DNA of 64,000 nucleotides, taken from the NCBI GenBank assembly GCA_016882525.1, contig VGPU01000003.1, positions 45,978 through 109,977 of the forward strand, written 5' to 3'. The notes under the pieces were generated by a model. It worked only from the letters and a program-made list of their open reading frames with translations, ran no database searches and had not been told where the DNA came from. This document shows, piece by piece, positions 1,625-64,000 of this stretch. Position 1 is the stretch's first letter. The number at the start of each line of letters is the position of its first letter. The position numbers were made by a program, and so were the translations under genes. The DNA is from Cyanobacteria bacterium M_surface_10_m2_119 (lineage in GTDB: Bacteria; Cyanobacteriota; Cyanobacteriia; PCC-6307; Cyanobiaceae).

Positions 1625-4600
1625 GGCTTCAGCTCCTGCCGCAGCTCCAGTAGTGGCCCGTGCAGCGCCAGGGCCAGCTCTTCCACCGCAGGGGTGAGCA
1701 ACTCCGCCAGGGGCTGATCGCTGCCAAAGCAGAGGGCCAGGGCCGCTTCGCAGCGTTCCCCGGGAGTGCTGAATCCCCCCTCCCAGGCGTCACGCGCCTT
1801 GCTCCAGCCCCGGCCCTGGTTTGGTTTGGCCGCTTCCGCTTCGGCATAGGCCCAGCCCGTTTCCGGGGGCAGGGGCCAGCAGCTCAGGCGGTGCGCCTCG
1901 CGCCAGCCGCGCAGTTGCTCCAGCAGCTCGGCGGCGCGCGCGGGCGGTGGGGCGCTGAGTTGCTCCAGCAGGCGGAAGCGCTGCTTGTCGCGCCCCACCA
2001 GGGTGGCGCCGGCGGGGGCCTGGCCGGCGGCGGCTGCCAGGAGCAGCTCCAGCCACAACCGCAGGCGCTGCCGGCAGCGGGGACGGCCGGTGTGGGCGAG
2101 CACCAGCTGGCGGCCCCGCCAGGGCAGCACCGCTTCCAGCCCCCCCCAGCTCACCGCCTCCTGGCGGGCCGGCCCCAGCCGCTCCAGGCAGTCCTGCAGC
2201 GAGCGCCAGCGCGTCGCGAGCTGCTCCACCTCCAGCTCGCCGGCGGCCAGGGGCGGCAGCACGCCCCGTCCCCGCTCGAGGGCGGCCCAGTCGGGGTCGA
2301 GCTCCGGTGGCGGCAGGCCGTCGCCATCCAGCTGGGCTCGCAGCAGGGCGGCGCGGCGCCGTTCATCCAGCCGCAGATCCTCCAGGTCGCGCACCGGTTC
2401 CTCCCACTCCCGCGGCCGCAGGCCCAGCTCCTCCAGCCAACGGCTCTGGGGTGCCTCGATCCAGGCGCGCAGGTCGGCCCAGCCTTCGGCGGGGGTATCC
2501 GGCGGGGCCGGCTGGCCGCTGTTGCCGCCTGGTTCCAGCTGGCGCCAGGCCAGGCCCGCGACCGCCGCCTCGTTCGCGGTGTCCAGTTGGCGGCGGGCCA
2601 GGAGCAGGCGCCGGTCGCAGCTGGCCGGCGGCCAGTGGGGCTCCGCCAGGAAGTTGCGCCGCTCCAGGGGGCTGGCGGCGTGCTCGCGCAGGGGCAGCTG
2701 ACCCTCCAGCTGGAGGGCCAGCAGGTCGAGCCATTGGCGCACCGGCGCGGCCGGCTCCTGGGCTTCACCGGTGCGTTCGTCGCGGTTGCTCCAGCTGATC
2801 AGCAGGTGTCCCCGGGCCGAGAGCAGGCTCTCGAGCAGCACGTAGCGATCCTGATCGCCGCTGCTCGGATCGCCGAGGCGGCGCTGCTGCTCCAGCAGGT
2901 GGAATCCCGGGCGCTGGCGCTGGCGCGGGAAGGCGCCGGCATCGAGGCCCATCAGCACCACCACCTTGTGGGGGATGGCGCGCATGGGCTCCAGGGCGCT
3001 GATCGTGAGCGCGCCGGAGCGGTGGCCAAAGCGACCGCTGCCCTCGCTCAGGCGCTCGGCCAGCACCTCCGCCACCACCGCCGCCTCCAGCAGCAGCGGG
3101 CTGGCACCCGCGATGGCGTTCCAGTCGGCCAGCACCGCCTGCAGGCTCTGCAGCTCCCACGCCCGCTCGCCGCCGTCGCCGAACAGGGCGGCCAGCTGGT
3201 CGCGCAGCCCGCCCACCCAGTCGGCCACGCTGCGGGCCTGCCCCAGCCAGGCCAGGCTCTGCTCCAGTTGCCGCAGCAGCGCCAGCCAGCGCCCCTGCTG
3301 CTCCAGGCTTCCCGCCATTGCCAGCGGGGCTGTCTCGGCCGGCGCCAGCCCCGGGGTGTCGGGCAGCACCAGCCCAAGCACCAGCCGATCGATCGCCCAG
3401 CGCAGGCTGTGGCGCGGGTCACCGCCGCGGGCACGGCCATCGAGCCCCCAGCGGAAGCCGCTGCGCTGCAGGAGCGCCGTGATCTCCCCGGCCTCCGCCG
3501 GATCAATCCCCTGGTGGGTCAGCAGGGGCGCACAGCCGAGCACGGTCTCCAGGGCCGTGGCGGTGAGCCGGTCCCCCGCCAGCTGCAGCAGGGCCAGCAG
3601 CCCCTGGCTGATGCCTGCCTCGCTCTGCTGGCTGCGGTCGGTGAGGCGCCAGGGCAGGGTCACGCCGGTGGCCTCGCTGTCGCCGAACACCGCTCCCACC
3701 AGGGGCGCGAAGGCCTCCACCTGGGGGGTCATCACCAGAATGTCGCGCGGTTCGAGTTCGAGATCGGCCGCCAGCAGCTGCAAGAGCCGGTCGCGCACGA
3801 CCTGCAGCTGGCGCAGCCGTCCCGGACAGGCATGGAACTCCAACGAGCTGTCTGCAGGGCTGCGCTCCAGGGGTTGGTCCGTCTCCCCGGTGGCCAGCCG
3901 CTCCTGGAGTTGCTCCAGCAGGGTCGGGCGGTCCAGGGCCGCGCGGGCCGGCAGGAGGAAGGCGTCGTGGTCGTGCCAGGTGCCCGGCTGCGTGTCGCCG
4001 CTGGCCTCCAGCAGCTGCTGGAACTCCGCTCCCAGCCGGCCGAAGCGGGCCTCCAGGCCCGGCACGGCGAGCAGCCAGTCGCTGCCCAGCGGCTCGCCGG
4101 CGCGGGCATCGTGGCGGTGCCACAGGTCGCGGCAGGGCGTGAGCAGGTAGAGCTCCACCGCCATCCGCTGGGAGAGGGCCTGCAGCAGCTCCACCTGCAC
4201 CGGCGCCAGGCTGCTCAGGCCGAACAGGCGCAGGGGCTGGCCCGCTGACCTGGCAGCCTCTGTCCGCCGGCTGGCGGATGGGGCGGGCTCCTGCTGCAGC
4301 AGGGCGATCGCCTGCCGCGCCCTCAACCCGAAGGGCAGTCGCTCCAGCCGTTCGGCCAGCTGGCGCAGCAGCAGGGGCTGCCAGCGCAGGGGCTCGGCCA
4401 GCGGCGCTCCGGTGCCATCGAGATCGCGGCCCTGGAGCCAGTCCTCGAGCATGGCGGGGCGGTAGAGGCCGTAGTCGTCGAGGGCGTCGGCGATGGCACG
4501 ACCGAGCTGCCACAGAGGTGCATCCAGCAGTCGGTGGTCGGCATCGCGCCGCTCCAGCCACTGCCGCAGCGGTGTCGCCTCCGGCGCCTCCAGCAGGGCT

Positions 4601-56234: not shown

Positions 56235-56262
56235 CGTTGGGGGCAGTCAACTGTGAGTGGGA

Positions 56263-57006
56263 ATGGCGCGACAGGCCGTGATCGCCGGCAACTGGAAGAT
56301 GCACATGACCTGCGCGGAGACGCGGGCCTTCGCCGCCACCTTCCGCCCCCTGATTGCCAATCTCCCGGCCGACCGCCAGGTGGTGATCGCTCCGCCCTTC
56401 ACCTCGATCCCCACCCTCTGCCGGCACCTGGAGGGGGCAGGCGTGGCGATTGCCGGTCAGAACGTGCACTGGGAAGACCAGGGCGCCTACACGGGCATGA
56501 TCTCGGCGCCGATGCTACTGGAGCATGGCGTCAGCCACGCGATCGTGGGCCACAGCGAGCCCCGCAAGTACTACAGCGAGAGCGACGAGCAGATCAACCT
56601 GCGCGCCCGCAATGCCCAGCGCCACGGCCTGATCCCGATCCTGTGCGTGGGCGAGAGCCTCGACCAGCGCGAGGCCGGCGAAACCGAGCGGGTGATCCAC
56701 CGCCAGATCGAGCAGGGCCTCGAAGACGTGGACCCCACCCGCCTGATCGTGGCCTACGAGCCGATCTGGGCGATCGGCACCGGCAAGACCTGCGCCGCCG
56801 AGGAGGCCAACCGCATCTGCGGCCTGATTCGCGGCTGGGTGGGCAACAACGAGGTGACCGTGCAGTACGGCGGCTCGGTGAATCCCGCCACCATCGACGA
56901 CCTGATGGCCCAGAGCGAGATCGATGGCGTGCTGGTGGGCGGTGCCTCCCTGCAGGCCGAGAGCTTCGCCCGCATCGCCAACTACCAGGTGCCGGCGGCG
57001 GTGTGA
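56263..57006 (+). CDS. tpiA: Triose-phosphate isomerase
   Basis: [16 protein letters not shown]...[11 protein letters not shown]...[15 protein letters not shown]...VQYGGSVNP. Confidence 0.97.
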
Positions 57007-57836
57007 GCTCCCCGCCCGTGCCCGCTCCCCTGGTGATGGGGGTGATGAACCTCACCCCCGATTCCTTCAGCGACGGTGGCCGGATCCAGGGGGTGGAGCA
57101 GGCCCTGCGCCAGGCCGGCCGCTTGCTCGCCCAGGGGGCGGCCGTGCTCGATCTCGGCGGCCAGAGCACCCGCCCGGGGGCGGAGGAGGTGGGGCCGGAG
57201 CGGGAGCTGGAGCGCCTGCTGCCTGCCCTCACCGCCATTCGCGCCGCCCATCCCGAGGCGGTGCTCTCGGTCGACACCTTCCACGCCCGCGTGGCCGAGG
57301 CGGCCCTGGCGGCCGGCGCCGACTGGATCAACGACGTGCGCGGCGGCAGCAGCCTGCGCGATCCGGCGATGGCGGCCCTTGTGGCCCGCAGCGGCTGCCG
57401 CTATGTGCTGATGCACAGCCGCGGCACCAGCAGCGCTATGGATGGGCTGGCGGTGTACGGCGATGTGGTGGCGGAGGTGCGCGCCGAGCTGGAGGCCGCC
57501 AGCGCCAGCCTGCAGGCGGAGGGGGTGCGGCGCGAGCAGATCCTCTGGGATCCGGGCCTGGGTTTCGCCAAGACCACCGAGCAGAACCTGGAGTTGCTGC
57601 GCCGCCTGCCCGAGCTGGTGGCCGCTGGTTTTCCCCTGCTGGTGGGCCCTTCGCGCAAGCGCTTCATCGGCGCGGTGCTGGAGGAGCCCCGGTCCCGCGC
57701 CCGCCTCTGGGGCACGGCGGCGGTGTGCGCCCTGGCGGCGGCCCAGGGGGCGGCGGTGTTGCGGGTGCACGATGTGGGCCCGATCGCCCAGGTGGTGCGG
57801 ATGGCGGCGGCGGTTTCGCCTCAGGCGGCGAGGTAG
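57003..57836 (+). CDS. folP: Dihydropteroate synthase
   Basis: [58 protein letters not shown] start overlaps tpiA stop. Confidence 0.95.
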
Positions 57837-58498
57837 TCGATTTCGCCGCGCTCGTTCACCCGGGCCAGGGAGAAAAAGCGGGCCATCGTCGGGGAGATGT
57901 GGCCGTTGGCCGCCAGGATCTCGCCGATGCGGCCACCGCGCTGGCGCTGCTGCTCGAGGGCCTGGTTCAGCTGCTCGCTGCTGATGGCCCCCAGCTCCAG
58001 CAGGCGCTGGCCCAGCCGCTTTTCGTTGAAGCCCTGCTCGTCGAACAGGGCGGGATTGAGCAGCAGATCGAGGATCTGGGGAGGCACCTGCAGGTTGAGG
58101 CGCAGGAACTCGCCGAAGCGCTGGGTCTCGGCGAAGGGGCGGTAATCCTCCAGGAGCTGCTCGAGTTCCTCGAGCTCGAGCACGCCGGCCTGCACCAGCT
58201 TGTTGCCCAGGGTCTGGCTCTGGAAGCTGCCGTTGCCGCTGGCACCGGCGGCGGCGTTGAGGTCGCCCTCCACCAGCTGCGGGGGCTGGAAGAACTCCTG
58301 CACCCAGCTGTCCTGGCCCAGAAATGCGTAGAGCTGCTGAGGGTTAACGGTAAGACTGCCGAAGTTTTCCTCGATCAGCTCTTCCAGGAAGGCCACTTCT
58401 GTGGTGGGGCCGATCACCTGGAACGGAAGGCGGGGTGCCTGGCCATTGGCGACGAGCTCCAGTTGCACCTGGGGGGAGGTCAGCCGGAAGCGGTACAT
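57821..58498 (-). CDS. Uncharacterised protein with C-terminal MshEN-like motif, divergent to T1SS genes
   Basis: Start at MYRFRLTSPQVQLELVANGQ; C-terminal RLGQRLLELGAISSEQLNQALEQQRQRGGRIGEILAANGHIS, with a weaker related copy LGNKLVQAGVLELEELEQLLEDYRPFAETQRFGEFLRL. Confidence 0.75.
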   Translation of the reverse strand: MYRFRLTSPQVQLELVANGQAPRLPFQVIGPTTEVAFLEELIEENFGSLTVNPQQLYAFLGQDSWVQEFFQPPQLVEGDLNAAAGASGNGSFQSQTLGNKLVQAGVLELEELEQLLEDYRPFAETQRFGEFLRLNLQVPPQILDLLLNPALFDEQGFNEKRLGQRLLELGAISSEQLNQALEQQRQRGGRIGEILAANGHISPTMARFFSLARVNERGEIDYLAA

Positions 58499-58650
58499 AG
58501 CCACTGGGGAAGATGGCTGCAAGGTAGCCCCGCCGGGCGGCAGTGGCAGCGGCTGGGCCTGTGCAAGTTTCCGCTGACTTGTGCTGCGTGAATGAATAGA
58601 TCTGGCCACCACAGCTAAGTTGCGGCTGATTTACATCAGGGCGTCGCTCG

Positions 58651-60426
58651 GTGACTCCTTCGATCTCTGGTCGGCCATCCGGCCGCTCCGCCGGATCCGG
58701 CCCTTCTCCCGGAGGTGGCGGTTCCGCCTCGGGCACTGTGCTGCAACGGTTCTGGGCGGGTGTGCAACACACCTGGCACACCAGTTTCGACCTGCTGGAG
58801 GAGCTGGTGCGCCATCGCTTCTTCCAGTCGCTGCGCGAGGTCGACTGGAGCGGCTACCAGCTCGGACCGATCCTCGTTGCTTCGGTTTTAATCAATTTAC
58901 TGGAGCTGGCCTCGCCGCTTTACATCAATATCGTTTACACATCGGTGTTGCCTTCGGGGGCGCTTTCGAGCCTCGTGGTGCTCACCGTGGGCGTGGTGGT
59001 GCTGATGGTGCTGGGGGGCTGGCTGAAGACCGTGCGCCTCGGCCTCACCGGGGCTGACGGCGCCCGCATGGAGCACCGCCGGCGGATGGAGTCGCTGATC
59101 CACTTCTCGCAGATGCGCCTGGGTGACTACCTGAGCGTGTCGCCCGCCACCCACGCCGAGCGCCTCAACAGCATCAACATGCTGCGCGACGAGAGCTCCC
59201 TGCAGGCCCTCACCACCGCCATCGACCTGGCCTTCTCGCTGCTGTTCGTGGTGGTGCTCTTCCTGATCGCCGGCAGCGTGGGCATCGTGGCGGTGATCGC
59301 CATCGTGGTGTACCTGCTGCGGGCCCTGGCCTACGCCCGCGACTTCGAGGCCCTCTCCAAGCAGCGCGACCTGCTCGAGCTCGATCGTCTCTCCTACCAG
59401 GGCAAGCTGATGGGCTCGATCGACCTGATCAAGTCGAACGGCCTGGGCCGCCAGTTCCTGGTGGGCAACGAGCAGCGCCAGGAGGAGCTGGCCTGGCAGC
59501 GGATGGTGAACAACCGCTTCACCGGCCAACAGCAGGCCTTCGGCAGCCTGATGAGCCAGCTCACCATGGCCGGCATCGTCACCTGGGGGGCCCTGCTGGT
59601 GATCCGCGGCCAGCTGCTGGTGGGGGCCCTGGCGGCGGCCCTGCTGCTGGCCGGCAAGATCCTCTCCCCCTGGCAGCAGGCGATCGGCCTGTGGAACAGC
59701 TACCGGCGCCTGGGCCATGCCCGCGATGAATACGAGGCGCTGATGGCGATGCCGATGGAATCGGAGGGGGGCGATGCCCAGCTGGAGATCCAGCCCCAGT
59801 CGGCCCTGAGCCTGGCGATGGCCGGCCAGCCCCTGGCGGTTGTGCCCTCCGGTTCGGTCACCCTGCTGCGCGACGGCAGCTTCGGCGCCGACACCCGCCA
59901 CCTCTTTCTGGCCCTGCTGCAGATCGAGCCCGAGCCCGATCTGGCGGTGAATGGCCTGCCGGTGGCCCGCTACCAGCGCGACCACCTGCGCGATCGGATC
60001 GCCTACGTGGATCCGGCCCGCGACTTCTTCGAGGGCACCCTGCTGCAGAACATCACCAGCTTCCAGCCGCGCCGTTACCAGCGCCGCGCCCTGTTCTGGG
60101 CCTTCCTCACCGGCCTCGACACCAAGGTGCGCGCCCTGCCGGGCGGCTACACCACGGCCATGGGCAGCACCGTGCCTTCCGGCCTCTCCCGCGACGCCCA
60201 GCAGCTCTTCCATGTGGTGACGGCCCTGGCCCGCAGCCCGCAGGTGCTGCTGCTCGACCTGAGTGACTGCTCCTACGGCAAGGAGTTCATCGATGGCCTG
60301 CAGCGCATCCTGCGCCGCTGCCGCGGCACCACCACGGTTCTGATCAGCGGGGCGGGCCGGGTGCTCACCACCCTCAGCGACCAGGAGCTCGCCGTTCCCA
60401 CCCTGCGCCGGGAGGTGCTCGCATGA
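58651..60426 (+). CDS. T1SS-type ABC half-exporter with degenerate nucleotide-binding domain
   Basis: TM domain like PrtD/HlyB family; at Walker A position DGSFGADTR (no Lys), Walker B VLLLDLSD (no catalytic Glu), signature region SGLSRDAQQ. Confidence 0.82.
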   Translation: MTPSISGRPSGRSAGSGPSPGGGGSASGTVLQRFWAGVQHTWHTSFDLLEELVRHRFFQSLREVDWSGYQLGPILVASVLINLLELASPLYINIVYTSVLPSGALSSLVVLTVGVVVLMVLGGWLKTVRLGLTGADGARMEHRRRMESLIHFSQMRLGDYLSVSPATHAERLNSINMLRDESSLQALTTAIDLAFSLLFVVVLFLIAGSVGIVAVIAIVVYLLRALAYARDFEALSKQRDLLELDRLSYQGKLMGSIDLIKSNGLGRQFLVGNEQRQEELAWQRMVNNRFTGQQQAFGSLMSQLTMAGIVTWGALLVIRGQLLVGALAAALLLAGKILSPWQQAIGLWNSYRRLGHARDEYEALMAMPMESEGGDAQLEIQPQSALSLAMAGQPLAVVPSGSVTLLRDGSFGADTRHLFLALLQIEPEPDLAVNGLPVARYQRDHLRDRIAYVDPARDFFEGTLLQNITSFQPRRYQRRALFWAFLTGLDTKVRALPGGYTTAMGSTVPSGLSRDAQQLFHVVTALARSPQVLLLDLSDCSYGKEFIDGLQRILRRCRGTTTVLISGAGRVLTTLSDQELAVPTLRREVLA

Positions 60427-62591
60427 CCGCCACCTCGTCCCGGAAGTCCAGCTCCAACCAGGCCAGTTCCACCCGGGCGATGTTGCTGCGCGACCTCACC
60501 CTCAGCCCGGAAGCGCCGATGGCCTTCTGCCTGCGGCTCCTGCTGCAGCAGATGCTCTGGACCGGGCGCCCCGATGAGCTGTTCGAGCTGCTCGGCTCCG
60601 ACCCCCGCCAGATGGATCTGGTGGATGCCCGCAACCTGCTGCTGCGGCTGGGATACGGCAGCAGCATGGAGGTGCTGGAGAGCTGGAGCCAGCTCAACCC
60701 CCAGCTCCTGCCGGCCCTCTATGTGGCGCCGGACAACGTGCCCTTCGTGCTCTCGCGCACCGCCCGCGGCGAGCTGGTGGCCGGCAATGTGAACGGCCGC
60801 TGCGAGCTCACGGAGCTGCCCACGGGCGGCCGCCTGGTGCTGATCCAGGAGCGGGGCAGCACCGAGCGGGTCACCCTGCTGCAGCAGGTGCTCTACCGCT
60901 TCACCAACCGCATCTCCCTGCTCTATGGCCTGAGCTTCGCCCTGGCCCTGCTGGCGCTCACGCTGCCCTTCTACATCCGGGCGATCTACAACATCGCCAT
61001 CCCCAGCAACAGCGTGATCTCCACCTTCTGGATCTTCCTGGGGGTGGTGCTGCTGTTTGTGCTGGATTGGATCCTGCGCCAGTGGCGGGCCTCCCAGCTG
61101 GCCCAGCTCTCCGGACGCCTCGATGCCCTGGTGGGCGTGAGCGTGGTGCAGAAGCTCTTCGGCCTGGATTACCGCCAGATCGAGACCCTGGGCCGGGCGG
61201 GCCTGAACAACCGCCTGCGCAACGTCGACAGCCTGATCGGTTACCTGCAGGGGCCACTGGCGCTGGCCTGCCTGGATTTCCCCTTCGTGCTGATCTACCT
61301 GGGGGCGATCGCCTGGATCAGCGGCTGGCTGGTGCTGGTGCCGATCGTGCTGATGGTGGTGAGCGGCCTGCTGGTGTGGCTGCTCTCGCGCTACTACACC
61401 GGTGCCGCCGAGCTCAACCTGGCCACCGGCATCGGCATCGGTCAGGCCCAGCAGGAGATGGTGAGCCGCTTCCTGGAAGTGAAGCTCGCCAACGTGGAGT
61501 GGGTGTGGCTGCAGCGGCTGCGGGGCCTCTCGGCCCAGAGCACCAGCAGCTCGCGGGTGCTGAGCCAGCAGGTGGGCCGCCTGCAGGTGATCACCAGCAC
61601 CACGGCCCAGCTGGGCGGCGTGCTCACCCTGGCGGTGGGCGTGTGGCTGGCCTACACCAGCAACCAGGGGGCGGCGGCGATGGGCAACCTGATCGCCGCC
61701 ATGTTCTTCGTGTGGCGCGTGTTCACGCCCTTCCAGCAGCTGATGAACGCGCTGCTGCGGTACAACACGATGAAGAACCAGTACGTGCAGCTCGATCAGT
61801 TCCTGAAGCTGCGCAGCGCCAACCGGGCCACCAGCACCCTGGCCGGTGCTGCGCCGCGCATGCGGGGCTCGGTGCTGCTCGATTTGGCGGCCTGCCGCCT
61901 GGGCAGCGAGGCGGCCCTGGCCCTCACCCGGGCGTCGCTTTCGGTGTCGCCCGGCGAGATCCTGGCGGTCACGGGTAACCCCGGCTGCGGCAAGAGCACG
62001 GTGCTGCGCCTGATCGACCAGCTGTACCCGATGGCCAGCGGCACCCTGCTGTTCGACGGCAAGGACTACCGCCAGTTCAGCGTGGAGGCGATCCAGCGCA
62101 ACATCGCTTACCTGATGCCGGATACGGCCCTGCTGCCGGGCACGGTGTGGTCGAACCACACGGCGATGAACCCCGATGCCACGGTGGCCGGGGTGCGGCG
62201 GGTGTGCGCCGATCTGGGGCTGCTGGGCTTCTTCGAGAGCCTGCCCGAGGGGCTCGACACGCCCCTGAGCGACGACATCGTGTATCAGCTGCCCAGCGGC
62301 GTGCGCCAGCTGATGGCCCTGGCCCAGGCCCTGATCAAGGACACGCCGATCCTGCTGATCGACGACATCAGCCAGGGCCTGGCGCCCGACCAGTTCCAGC
62401 GGGTGCTGGAGGCGCTGCCGGCCCTGCGGCGCTGCAGCTTCAGCGGCCAGGAGCGCAGCGTGATCCTCGCCACCGACAACAAGCAGCTGCTGGAGGTGGC
62501 CGATCGTCTCTGCATCCTCGACAAGGGGGTGACCTCCTTCCAGGGCACCGCTGAGGAGCTGCGTGCCCGCATGCAGCAGGGCGCCGCCTGA
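60423..62591 (+). CDS. T1SS ABC exporter, ATP-binding/permease, with N-terminal C39-like region
   Basis: Walker A AVTGNPGCGKSTVLRLI, signature LPSGVRQLMALAQAL, Walker B ILLIDDIS; 4-nt overlap with upstream gene. Confidence 0.88.
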   Translation: MTATSSRKSSSNQASSTRAMLLRDLTLSPEAPMAFCLRLLLQQMLWTGRPDELFELLGSDPRQMDLVDARNLLLRLGYGSSMEVLESWSQLNPQLLPALYVAPDNVPFVLSRTARGELVAGNVNGRCELTELPTGGRLVLIQERGSTERVTLLQQVLYRFTNRISLLYGLSFALALLALTLPFYIRAIYNIAIPSNSVISTFWIFLGVVLLFVLDWILRQWRASQLAQLSGRLDALVGVSVVQKLFGLDYRQIETLGRAGLNNRLRNVDSLIGYLQGPLALACLDFPFVLIYLGAIAWISGWLVLVPIVLMVVSGLLVWLLSRYYTGAAELNLATGIGIGQAQQEMVSRFLEVKLANVEWVWLQRLRGLSAQSTSSSRVLSQQVGRLQVITSTTAQLGGVLTLAVGVWLAYTSNQGAAAMGNLIAAMFFVWRVFTPFQQLMNALLRYNTMKNQYVQLDQFLKLRSANRATSTLAGAAPRMRGSVLLDLAACRLGSEAALALTRASLSVSPGEILAVTGNPGCGKSTVLRLIDQLYPMASGTLLFDGKDYRQFSVEAIQRNIAYLMPDTALLPGTVWSNHTAMNPDATVAGVRRVCADLGLLGFFESLPEGLDTPLSDDIVYQLPSGVRQLMALAQALIKDTPILLIDDISQGLAPDQFQRVLEALPALRRCSFSGQERSVILATDNKQLLEVADRLCILDKGVTSFQGTAEELRARMQQGAA

Positions 62592-62668
62592 TCCCCCGCT
62601 GATCGTTTTTCCATCGGTTTGTTCGTTCCCGTTTCCCCGCTTCGCCTTTCCACCTCGCCTCACCTGCC

Positions 62669-64000
62669 ATGACCTCCACTCCGGCCAATTCCCCCAAGGG
62701 CGGCCCGATCCCTCCGGAAGACTCCCTGGCCCTGCCGCCGGTGGGCGGGGCCTCCGGCCTGCTGGCGCGGCTGCCGGGGCTCGACAGCCCCGATGCCCTC
62801 ACCCTGGTGGGTCGCAACCGCCTCAGCCAGGCGCTGGAGCTGGAGGAGAAGCCCGACAACCGCTACCTGCGCCTGAGCCTCTACGTGCTGGGCGGGGCGG
62901 CGCTGATCTTCTTCCCCTGGGCGGCGCTGACGCCGATCACCCAGGTGGTGAATGCCTCCGGCGAGGTGATCCCCCAGGGGGAGGTGAATGTGGTGCAGCA
63001 CCTGGAGGGGGGCATCGTCGCCCGGGTGGATGTGGCCGACGGCGATGAGGTGCGCCAGGGCCAGGTGATGCTCGAGCTGCGCCCCAACCTTGTGGAGAGT
63101 GAGTACCTGGCCACCCAGCAGCAGCTGAAAAACCTGTTGGTGCAGCAAAAGCAGCTGCAGGCGGCGATTCGGGGCGAGCGGTTGCTGCCGGGTGAGCCGG
63201 GCAAGGTGAGGGACGCCCAGCGGGAGCTGCTCAACAGCCGCATCGACAACCGCGCTGACCAGATCGAGCGGGTGCAGGCCCAGATCGCCCAGAAGCGGGC
63301 GGAGATCAATGGCCTGAACGACCAGATTGCCAAGTTCCAGCGAGAGCGGGCGCTCTACGCCGAGCAGCGGCGCATGTATGCCGACCTGGTGGCCACCGGC
63401 GCCGCCTCCCGCCTCAACCTGCTCAATGCCGACCAGCAGGTGGCCGCGTCGAACACCAAGTTGGCTGAGCTGCAGGGGGCCCGCAACGAGGCCAACAAGC
63501 TGCTGAGCGAGGCCTTGGCCAACCTGCGCAGCCTGCAGTCGGGCATCCTGCTGGAGCAGAACTCCGAGATCGCCAAGCTGGTGAACGAGGAGGCCGTGGT
63601 GGCCGAGAACATCAAGAAGGTGCGCAACCAGCTGGAGCGCACCAAGATCATGGCGCCGGTGGATGGCATGGTGAGCGACCTGCGCTTCCGTGCCCCGGGT
63701 GCCGTGGTGGGCCCCGGTGCGGTGGTGATGTCGGTGGTGCCGAGCGGCACCGAGCGGATGGCCGAGGTGCGCGTGCGCTCGGCCGACATCGGCTTCGTGA
63801 AAACGGGCCAGGCCGTGGAGGTGAAGCTCCAGCCCTTCGATTCCACGATCTACGGCTCGGTGCCCGGCCGGGTGGTGAGCATCGCCGCCTCCACCGTGCA
63901 GGACCCGGACGACCGGCAGTACTACTACAAGGCGCGGGTGCAGCTGGATCGCCAGTTCGTGGACGTGGCCAACCGCAAGTACCCGATCCAGGTGGGCATG
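62669..64000 (+). CDS. HlyD-family membrane fusion protein (truncated by window end)
   Basis: VVQHLEGGIVARVDVADGDEVRQGQVMLELRP, coiled-coil middle, LERTKIMAPVDGMVSDLRFRAPGAVVGPGAVVMSVVPSG; open to 64000. Confidence 0.92.
   Translation, partial: MTSTPANSPKGGPIPPEDSLALPPVGGASGLLARLPGLDSPDALTLVGRNRLSQALELEEKPDNRYLRLSLYVLGGAALIFFPWAALTPITQVVNASGEVIPQGEVNVVQHLEGGIVARVDVADGDEVRQGQVMLELRPNLVESEYLATQQQLKNLLVQQKQLQAAIRGERLLPGEPGKVRDAQRELLNSRIDNRADQIERVQAQIAQKRAEINGLNDQIAKFQRERALYAEQRRMYADLVATGAASRLNLLNADQQVAASNTKLAELQGARNEANKLLSEALANLRSLQSGILLEQNSEIAKLVNEEAVVAENIKKVRNQLERTKIMAPVDGMVSDLRFRAPGAVVGPGAVVMSVVPSGTERMAEVRVRSADIGFVKTGQAVEVKLQPFDSTIYGSVPGRVVSIAASTVQDPDDRQYYYKARVQLDRQFVDVANRKYPIQVGM

What the first reader, a model, noticed from the sequence alone, without database searches (positions are those of the whole stretch)
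58651..64000. Asymmetric type I secretion exporter: one dead-looking and one live-looking ATPase in tandem
Seen: two adjacent, 4-nt-overlapping ABC half-exporter genes, then an HlyD-type adaptor. In the first, the Walker A position reads GSFGADTR (Lys replaced by Thr), the residue after the Walker B Asp is Leu (LLLDLSD), and the signature is unrecognisable. In the second, GNPGCGKST is intact and Walker B ends in DD. Known: classical T1SS exporters such as HlyB and PrtD are homodimers with two functional sites. Inference: this may be a heterodimeric T1SS with one non-catalytic subunit. The substrate is probably encoded just past the window end.
Basis: partly seen in the sequence, partly recalled or inferred. 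Interest (0 to 1): 0.72.

Follow-up and report, generated by a model that had tools for sequence, protein, structure and literature searches.

The report
Protein exporter with both ATPases degenerate
Freshwater picocyanobacteria keep a two-gene protein exporter, next to a gene for a large surface protein, in which neither half has a normal ATP-burning site, which raises the question of what powers secretion.

Summary
A (58651-60426) and B (60423-62591) are adjacent T1SS-type ABC half-exporters with a 4-nt overlap, followed by HlyD. A has lost the Walker A Lys, Q-loop, signature, catalytic Glu and H-switch. B is not intact either: only Walker A and the Walker B Asp survive, while catalytic Glu is Asp, H-switch His is Asp, the Q-loop Gln is gone and LSGGQ is LPSGV. 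Composite sites pair motifs from both subunits, so neither site is canonical. These residues are fixed in 20 aligned ortholog pairs, and A's NBD is under purifying selection, so this is not decay. A sister pair (6 genomes) has lost Walker A Lys in both subunits. A and B co-occur 21/21 in 201 family genomes. An MshEN-like (c-di-GMP-receptor-type) gene, divergent upstream, is in the same 21 genomes and no others. The sequence past the window was found on contig C64 (157-nt overlap): HlyD end, then a large RTX/VWA secreted protein. Two-ABC T1SSs are known (RtxB/RtxE); one without any canonical site is not known to me. Best reading: an ATP-gated heterodimeric T1SS with one atypical ATP site, very slow or no hydrolysis. 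Energetics are untested.

The parts
57821..58495 (-). Gene X (about 224 aa; ORF may start at 58612): C-terminal MshEN-like c-di-GMP-receptor-type domain, divergent from the exporter operon
   Evidence: profile hits PDB MshE 5htl E=1e-9; 24-residue motif RLGQRLLELGAISSEQLNQALEQQ matches the published relaxed MshEN consensus, second motif imperfect; present in exactly the 21/201 genomes that have A and B
58651..60426 (+). A: T1SS-type ABC half-exporter, 591 aa, no C39-like domain, NBD fully degenerate
   Evidence: TIGR03375 E=1e-56, PF00664; HlyB/PCAT fold; motif table
59875..59898 (+). A: Walker A position GSFGADTR, Lys replaced by Thr (Ala/Val in most orthologs)
60181..60198 (+). A: signature position GLSRDA (LS kept, GG/Q lost)
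60247..60267 (+). A: Walker B LLLDLSD, catalytic Glu is Leu in 20/20 orthologs
60423..62591 (+). B: T1SS-type ABC half-exporter, 722 aa, with N-terminal C39-like (CLD-type) domain and a partly degenerate NBD
   Evidence: TIGR03375 E=2e-82; TIGR01846 HlyB aligned from model position 4; best Foldseek hit HlyB 8dck over 703 columns, though the model is low-confidence
61974..62000 (+). B: intact Walker A GNPGCGKST (Lys 20/20)
62289..62309 (+). B: degenerate signature LPSGVRQ
62352..62375 (+). B: Walker B LLIDDISQ, catalytic Glu is Asp in 20/20
62466..62483 (+). B: H-switch position LATDNK, His is Asp (Asp/Glu 19/20)
62669..64000 (+). HlyD-type periplasmic adaptor, cut by contig end; its last codons are on contig G000:C64 (L116:1-259)
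   Evidence: TIGR01843 E=7e-80; 157-nt overlap with one mismatch

Best explanation
X-A-B-HlyD is a dedicated type I secretion module that exports the large Ca-binding/repeat surface protein encoded immediately downstream. A and B form an obligate heterodimeric ABC exporter that joins HlyD and a TolC-type channel encoded elsewhere. A's NBD is a structural pseudo-ATPase that cannot bind ATP normally. B's NBD binds one ATP in an atypical composite site (B Walker A and B, plus A's LSxD signature remnant), where hydrolysis is absent or far below normal. ATP binding therefore probably acts as a slow gate or clamp that opens the channel, while net movement of the very long substrate is helped by extracellular folding and Ca binding (and/or the proton motive force). 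X, a c-di-GMP-receptor-like protein, probably couples the exporter or its expression to c-di-GMP. Shown: gene set, degeneracy, conservation, selection, co-occurrence, substrate-like neighbour. Inferred: dimer assembly, export of that neighbour, ATP binding, slow hydrolysis, gating, c-di-GMP binding.
For: T1SS family matches of A, B and HlyD; HlyB/PCAT top structural hits. Order A-B-HlyD in all 19 loci examined, plus two further class-1 loci. 21/21 co-occurrence of A and B in 201 genomes. Motif loss fixed in 20/20. dN/dS about 0.08-0.19 for A's NBD between close orthologs. Substrate-like large protein downstream with RTX, VWA or LapA repeats, including in this genome. X in the same 21 genomes, MshEN similarity, GGDEF genes in 21/21 of them against 74/201 overall. 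B with B' is one clade and A with A' another (weaker), so the pair is old.
Against: No biochemistry. A sequence cannot prove absence of hydrolysis: E->D sites retain slow activity (PMC7756269). No complex was modelled (A+B exceeds the structure tool's 1200 residues); B's single-chain model is poor (pLDDT 64). X's second MshEN half-motif is imperfect and c-di-GMP binding is untested. In two genomes X is not beside A. GGDEF and module co-occurrence is confounded by shared ancestry and habitat. All co-occurrence is within one family.
Confidence: 0.5

Rival explanations
1. Ordinary asymmetric exporter: despite substitutions, the B site (intact Walker A, Walker B DD) hydrolyses ATP fast enough to power transport, with Asp as catalytic base and A's LSxD as a functional signature.
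For: B keeps Walker A Lys and both Asp 20/20, A keeps signature Ser 19/20; strong constraint on both NBDs.
Against: Catalytic Glu, H-switch, Q-loop and partner signature are all altered at once; E->D sites are described as too slow to sustain transport on their own (PMC7756269). The sister class has lost even the Lys in both subunits.
Confidence: 0.25
2. Mixed machine: the degenerate A/B dimer is a non-hydrolysing part of a larger inner-membrane complex whose energy comes from a canonical T1SS ABC dimer encoded elsewhere. HlyB works as three dimers with six HlyD (PMC11026475).
For: The own genome has a canonical LssB-like ABC beside an HlyD on contig C68, with LSGGQ, DE and H intact; three-dimer architecture is published.
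Against: No extra T1SS ABC gene in the A/B neighbourhoods read; A/B has its own HlyD. The LssB-like gene is also in genomes without A/B, so no specific partner is indicated.
Confidence: 0.15
3. A/B is no longer an exporter: a pseudo-transporter serving as a c-di-GMP-regulated anchor, sensor or retention scaffold for the surface protein, which leaves by another system.
For: Neither NBD canonical; sister class has no Walker A Lys at all; MshEN-like partner.
Against: Complete HlyD, TMDs and C39-like domain retained under purifying selection; substrate-like gene next in order.
Confidence: 0.1

Closest known systems
RtxB/RtxE two-ABC type I secretion system of MARTX loci
   Same: Two related T1SS ABC half-exporters plus one HlyD-type adaptor, TolC encoded elsewhere, very large substrate; a heterodimer has been suggested (PMC3034196, PMC4316617).
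   Different: Both ABC proteins are described there as ATPases, each needed for secretion; gene order flanks HlyD. Here A and B are adjacent and both have degenerate NBDs. No direct sequence comparison was made here.
Degenerate-site heterodimeric ABC exporters (TM287/288, TmrAB, TAP, BmrCD)
   Same: Heterodimer with E->D, signature and H-loop changes in one site.
   Different: They keep one canonical site (PMC7756269); here neither composite site is canonical.
HlyB/PrtD/LssB (LapB) T1SS ABC exporters
   Same: Same TMD and NBD families; B has a C39-like domain; HlyD neighbour; RTX/LapA-like substrate candidate.
   Different: Those are homodimers with intact motifs; A and B score far below the TIGR03375 cut-off (193 and 277 vs 693 bits).
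NHLM bacteriocin export pair (TIGR03796/TIGR03797/TIGR03794)
   Same: Tandem ABC pair plus HlyD-like protein.
   Different: A, B and HlyD score far below those cut-offs; the candidate substrate is a large protein, not a leader peptide.
MshEN c-di-GMP receptor domain
   Same: X has one consensus 24-residue motif, a 5-residue spacer and a second, imperfect motif.
   Different: X is a free-standing protein tied to a T1SS, not part of a pilus or T2SS ATPase.

Membership tests
Type I secretion system | ABC exporter of HlyB/PrtD/LssB type | tested here: met
   best family TIGR03375 for A and B, below curated cut-off; Foldseek hits HlyB/PCAT1
Type I secretion system | HlyD-type adaptor in the operon | tested here: met
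   TIGR01843 over cut-off, completed on contig C64
Type I secretion system | TolC-type outer-membrane channel available | tested here: met
   four PF02321 matches at two places elsewhere in the genome, none in the operon
Type I secretion system | RTX or large-adhesin substrate, uncleaved C-terminal signal | tested here: inconclusive
   RTX repeats and large repeat protein next in order; secretion itself not testable
Type I secretion system | ATP hydrolysis by the ABC component | not testable with these tools
   motifs predict loss or strong impairment; needs an assay
Heterodimeric ABC exporter with one degenerate site | obligate pair of half-exporters | tested here: met
   21/21 co-occurrence and fixed gene order; physical dimer not shown
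Heterodimeric ABC exporter with one degenerate site | one canonical nucleotide-binding site retained | tested here: not met
   no site has Lys, Gln, LSGGQ, Glu and His together
RtxB/RtxE MARTX T1SS | two working ABC ATPases flanking the adaptor gene, MARTX toxin substrate | tested here: not met
   both degenerate, adjacent, non-MARTX substrate candidate
NHLM bacteriocin exporter | members of TIGR03796/03797/03794 | tested here: not met
   A 79/42 bits and B 146/134 bits against cut-offs of 853/709; HlyD 66 against 156
MshEN c-di-GMP receptor (X) | two 24-residue motifs with 5-residue spacer | tested here: inconclusive
   first motif full, second partial; profile match to 5htl E=1e-9

The most novel reading that the evidence does not exclude
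A family of type I secretion exporters in which ATP hydrolysis by the exporter no longer drives transport: ATP (class 1) or nothing (class 2) gates a protein channel, and substrate folding, Ca2+ or the proton motive force does the work, under a dedicated c-di-GMP-receptor-like protein in class 1.
Probability: 0.3. Interest if true: 0.88.

Novelty: new variant of a known kind. Interest (0 to 1): 0.64.

Why it matters
Degenerate sites in ABC exporters are usually discussed as one degenerate beside one canonical site. A selected, recurrent pair with none, and a sister pair lacking the Walker A Lys in both halves, is a natural test of whether nucleotide binding alone, or no nucleotide at all, can support protein secretion. 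It also links a T1SS to an MshEN-like protein, a possible new route from c-di-GMP to adhesin export in freshwater picocyanobacteria.

Tried and rejected
Pseudogene or decay of A: rejected (intact frames in all 19 loci, NBD dN/dS about 0.1). Misplaced motifs: rejected (no P-loop in A in any of the three forward frames; HlyB alignment agrees). NHLM bacteriocin system: rejected on scores. Link to the SwmA/SwmB motility exporter of Synechococcus WH8102: considered from memory; no source or sequence found to test it. Spread beyond the family: only genomes of the window's own family, 8/386 phylum-wide; weak hits in SAR11 and others cover the NBD only. A Flavobacteriales MAG contig (L093, 4.7 kb, 52%) is probably mis-binned.

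Full report
1. Observation. A runs 58651-60426 and B 60423-62591, sharing ATGA at 60423-60426. HlyD starts at 62669 and runs off the contig, which ends exactly at the window end.

2. B is degenerate too. Across 20 A and 20 B class-1 sequences aligned with intact controls: A has Walker A Lys 0/20 (Ala, Val, Thr, Gly, Ile), Q-loop Pro 20/20, Leu at the catalytic Glu 20/20, no H-switch His, D-loop Asp to Gly 20/20, signature LS then x-Asp. B has Walker A Lys 20/20 and Walker B Asp 20/20, but catalytic Glu to Asp 20/20, H-switch Asp/Glu 19/20, no Gln at the Q-loop position (some orthologs have one a residue later), signature Pro-x-Gly-Val. Since each site takes Walker motifs from one subunit and the signature from the other, site 1 (B's Walker motifs with A's signature) is atypical and site 2 (A's with B's) lacks the Lys altogether. 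So 'one dead, one live' should read 'one dead, one half-dead, no canonical site'.

3. Not decay. All 19 neighbour loci have A-B-HlyD in order; A is intact in all of them and B in all but G121. dN/dS (Nei-Gojobori) for A's NBD is about 0.08-0.19 between close orthologs, similar to or a little above its TMD; window versus others gives 0.28-0.44 for the NBD. The NBD of A is predicted confidently (pLDDT mostly 80-92), and Foldseek's best hits for A are PCAT1 and HlyB. B's model is poor overall (pLDDT 64) but its best hit is HlyB across the full length.

4. Distribution. In 201 genomes of the family, A (over 500 bits) is in 21, and B in the same 21. Phylum-wide only this family has B at E<=1e-60 (8/386). 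Named carriers are mostly freshwater Cyanobium, Synechococcus and Vulcanococcus (habitat from general knowledge). Two further class-1 loci repeat the same pattern.

5. A sister class. Six genomes carry a related A'-B' pair with its own HlyD. In both A' and B' the Walker A Lys is gone (B' has Thr or Arg), and the catalytic Glu is His, Ser or Asp in B'. A tree puts B with B' (99/99) and A with A' (92/66, weaker), so the duplication probably predates the split and degeneration went further in class 2.

6. The missing downstream. A search of the genome for HlyD found the end of the same gene at the start of contig C64. C64 overlaps window 63844-64000 by 157 nt with one mismatch. It continues with a large protein (L116:448-4159, in two overlapping frames) with DUF7507 repeats, a VWA-like segment (by eye) and RTX repeats, a 129-aa protein, an OmpR-type regulator, then what looks like the magnesium chelatase H gene (by eye). 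Several relatives have the same layout with LapA repeats, VWA, DUF5801, RTX, cadherin or Ig repeats. Substrate status is inferred from position and domains, not shown.

7. Gene X. The divergent gene upstream is found in exactly the same 21 genomes and nowhere else in the 201; it is not adjacent in two of them. Its C-terminal part matches MshEN c-di-GMP-binding domains (PDB 5htl E=1e-9; PilF, PilB). The first 24-residue motif fits the published consensus in the window protein; the second is partial. All 21 genomes have GGDEF genes against 74/201 overall (hypergeometric 1e-10, ignoring shared ancestry).

8. Comparison. Two-ABC T1SSs exist: RtxB/RtxE (PMC3034196; PMC4316617). Exporters with one degenerate site are common, but the review of them describes a canonical second site and says E->D sites are too slow to sustain transport (PMC7756269). 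My eight paper searches found no exporter described without any canonical site; that is absence in a partial library, not proof. HlyB works as three dimers on six HlyD, which makes a mixed machine with a canonical ABC conceivable.

9. Verdict. A new variant of T1SS exporter: heterodimeric and doubly degenerate, with a c-di-GMP-receptor-like partner. What powers it is open and testable.

Noticed in passing
L116:448-4159 (contig G000:C64): The substrate-like gene of this genome is split by a frameshift inside the VWA-like region (ORFs 448-2184 and 2147-4159); draft error or real break not resolved.
   Followed up: no
L045:11806-13935: In genome G121 (same genus) B is interrupted by two in-frame stops while A is intact; A's NBD there gives the highest dN/dS against the window (0.44).
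   Followed up: partly
L116:4163-4552; L055:10074-16889: A conserved small protein follows the substrate gene; a similar stretch (32% over 82 aa, found with the L057 copy) lies inside the large protein of L055, suggesting a fusion and a role in substrate handling.
   Followed up: partly
L116:4622-5335: An OmpR-type response regulator follows the small protein in this genome and in L040, L058 and L120; no kinase seen beside it.
   Followed up: no
window 56257-58612: The module sits beside tpiA and folP in most genera examined, so it looks like an old locus with repeated loss rather than recent transfer.
   Followed up: partly
L045:6412-9924: Downstream large ORF in G121 is dominated by Asp/Ser-rich repeats (ASDDDDD units).
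   Followed up: no
G000:C3:31600-32973: One of the TolC-type (OEP) matches of this genome has an in-frame TAG in its open frame.
   Followed up: no
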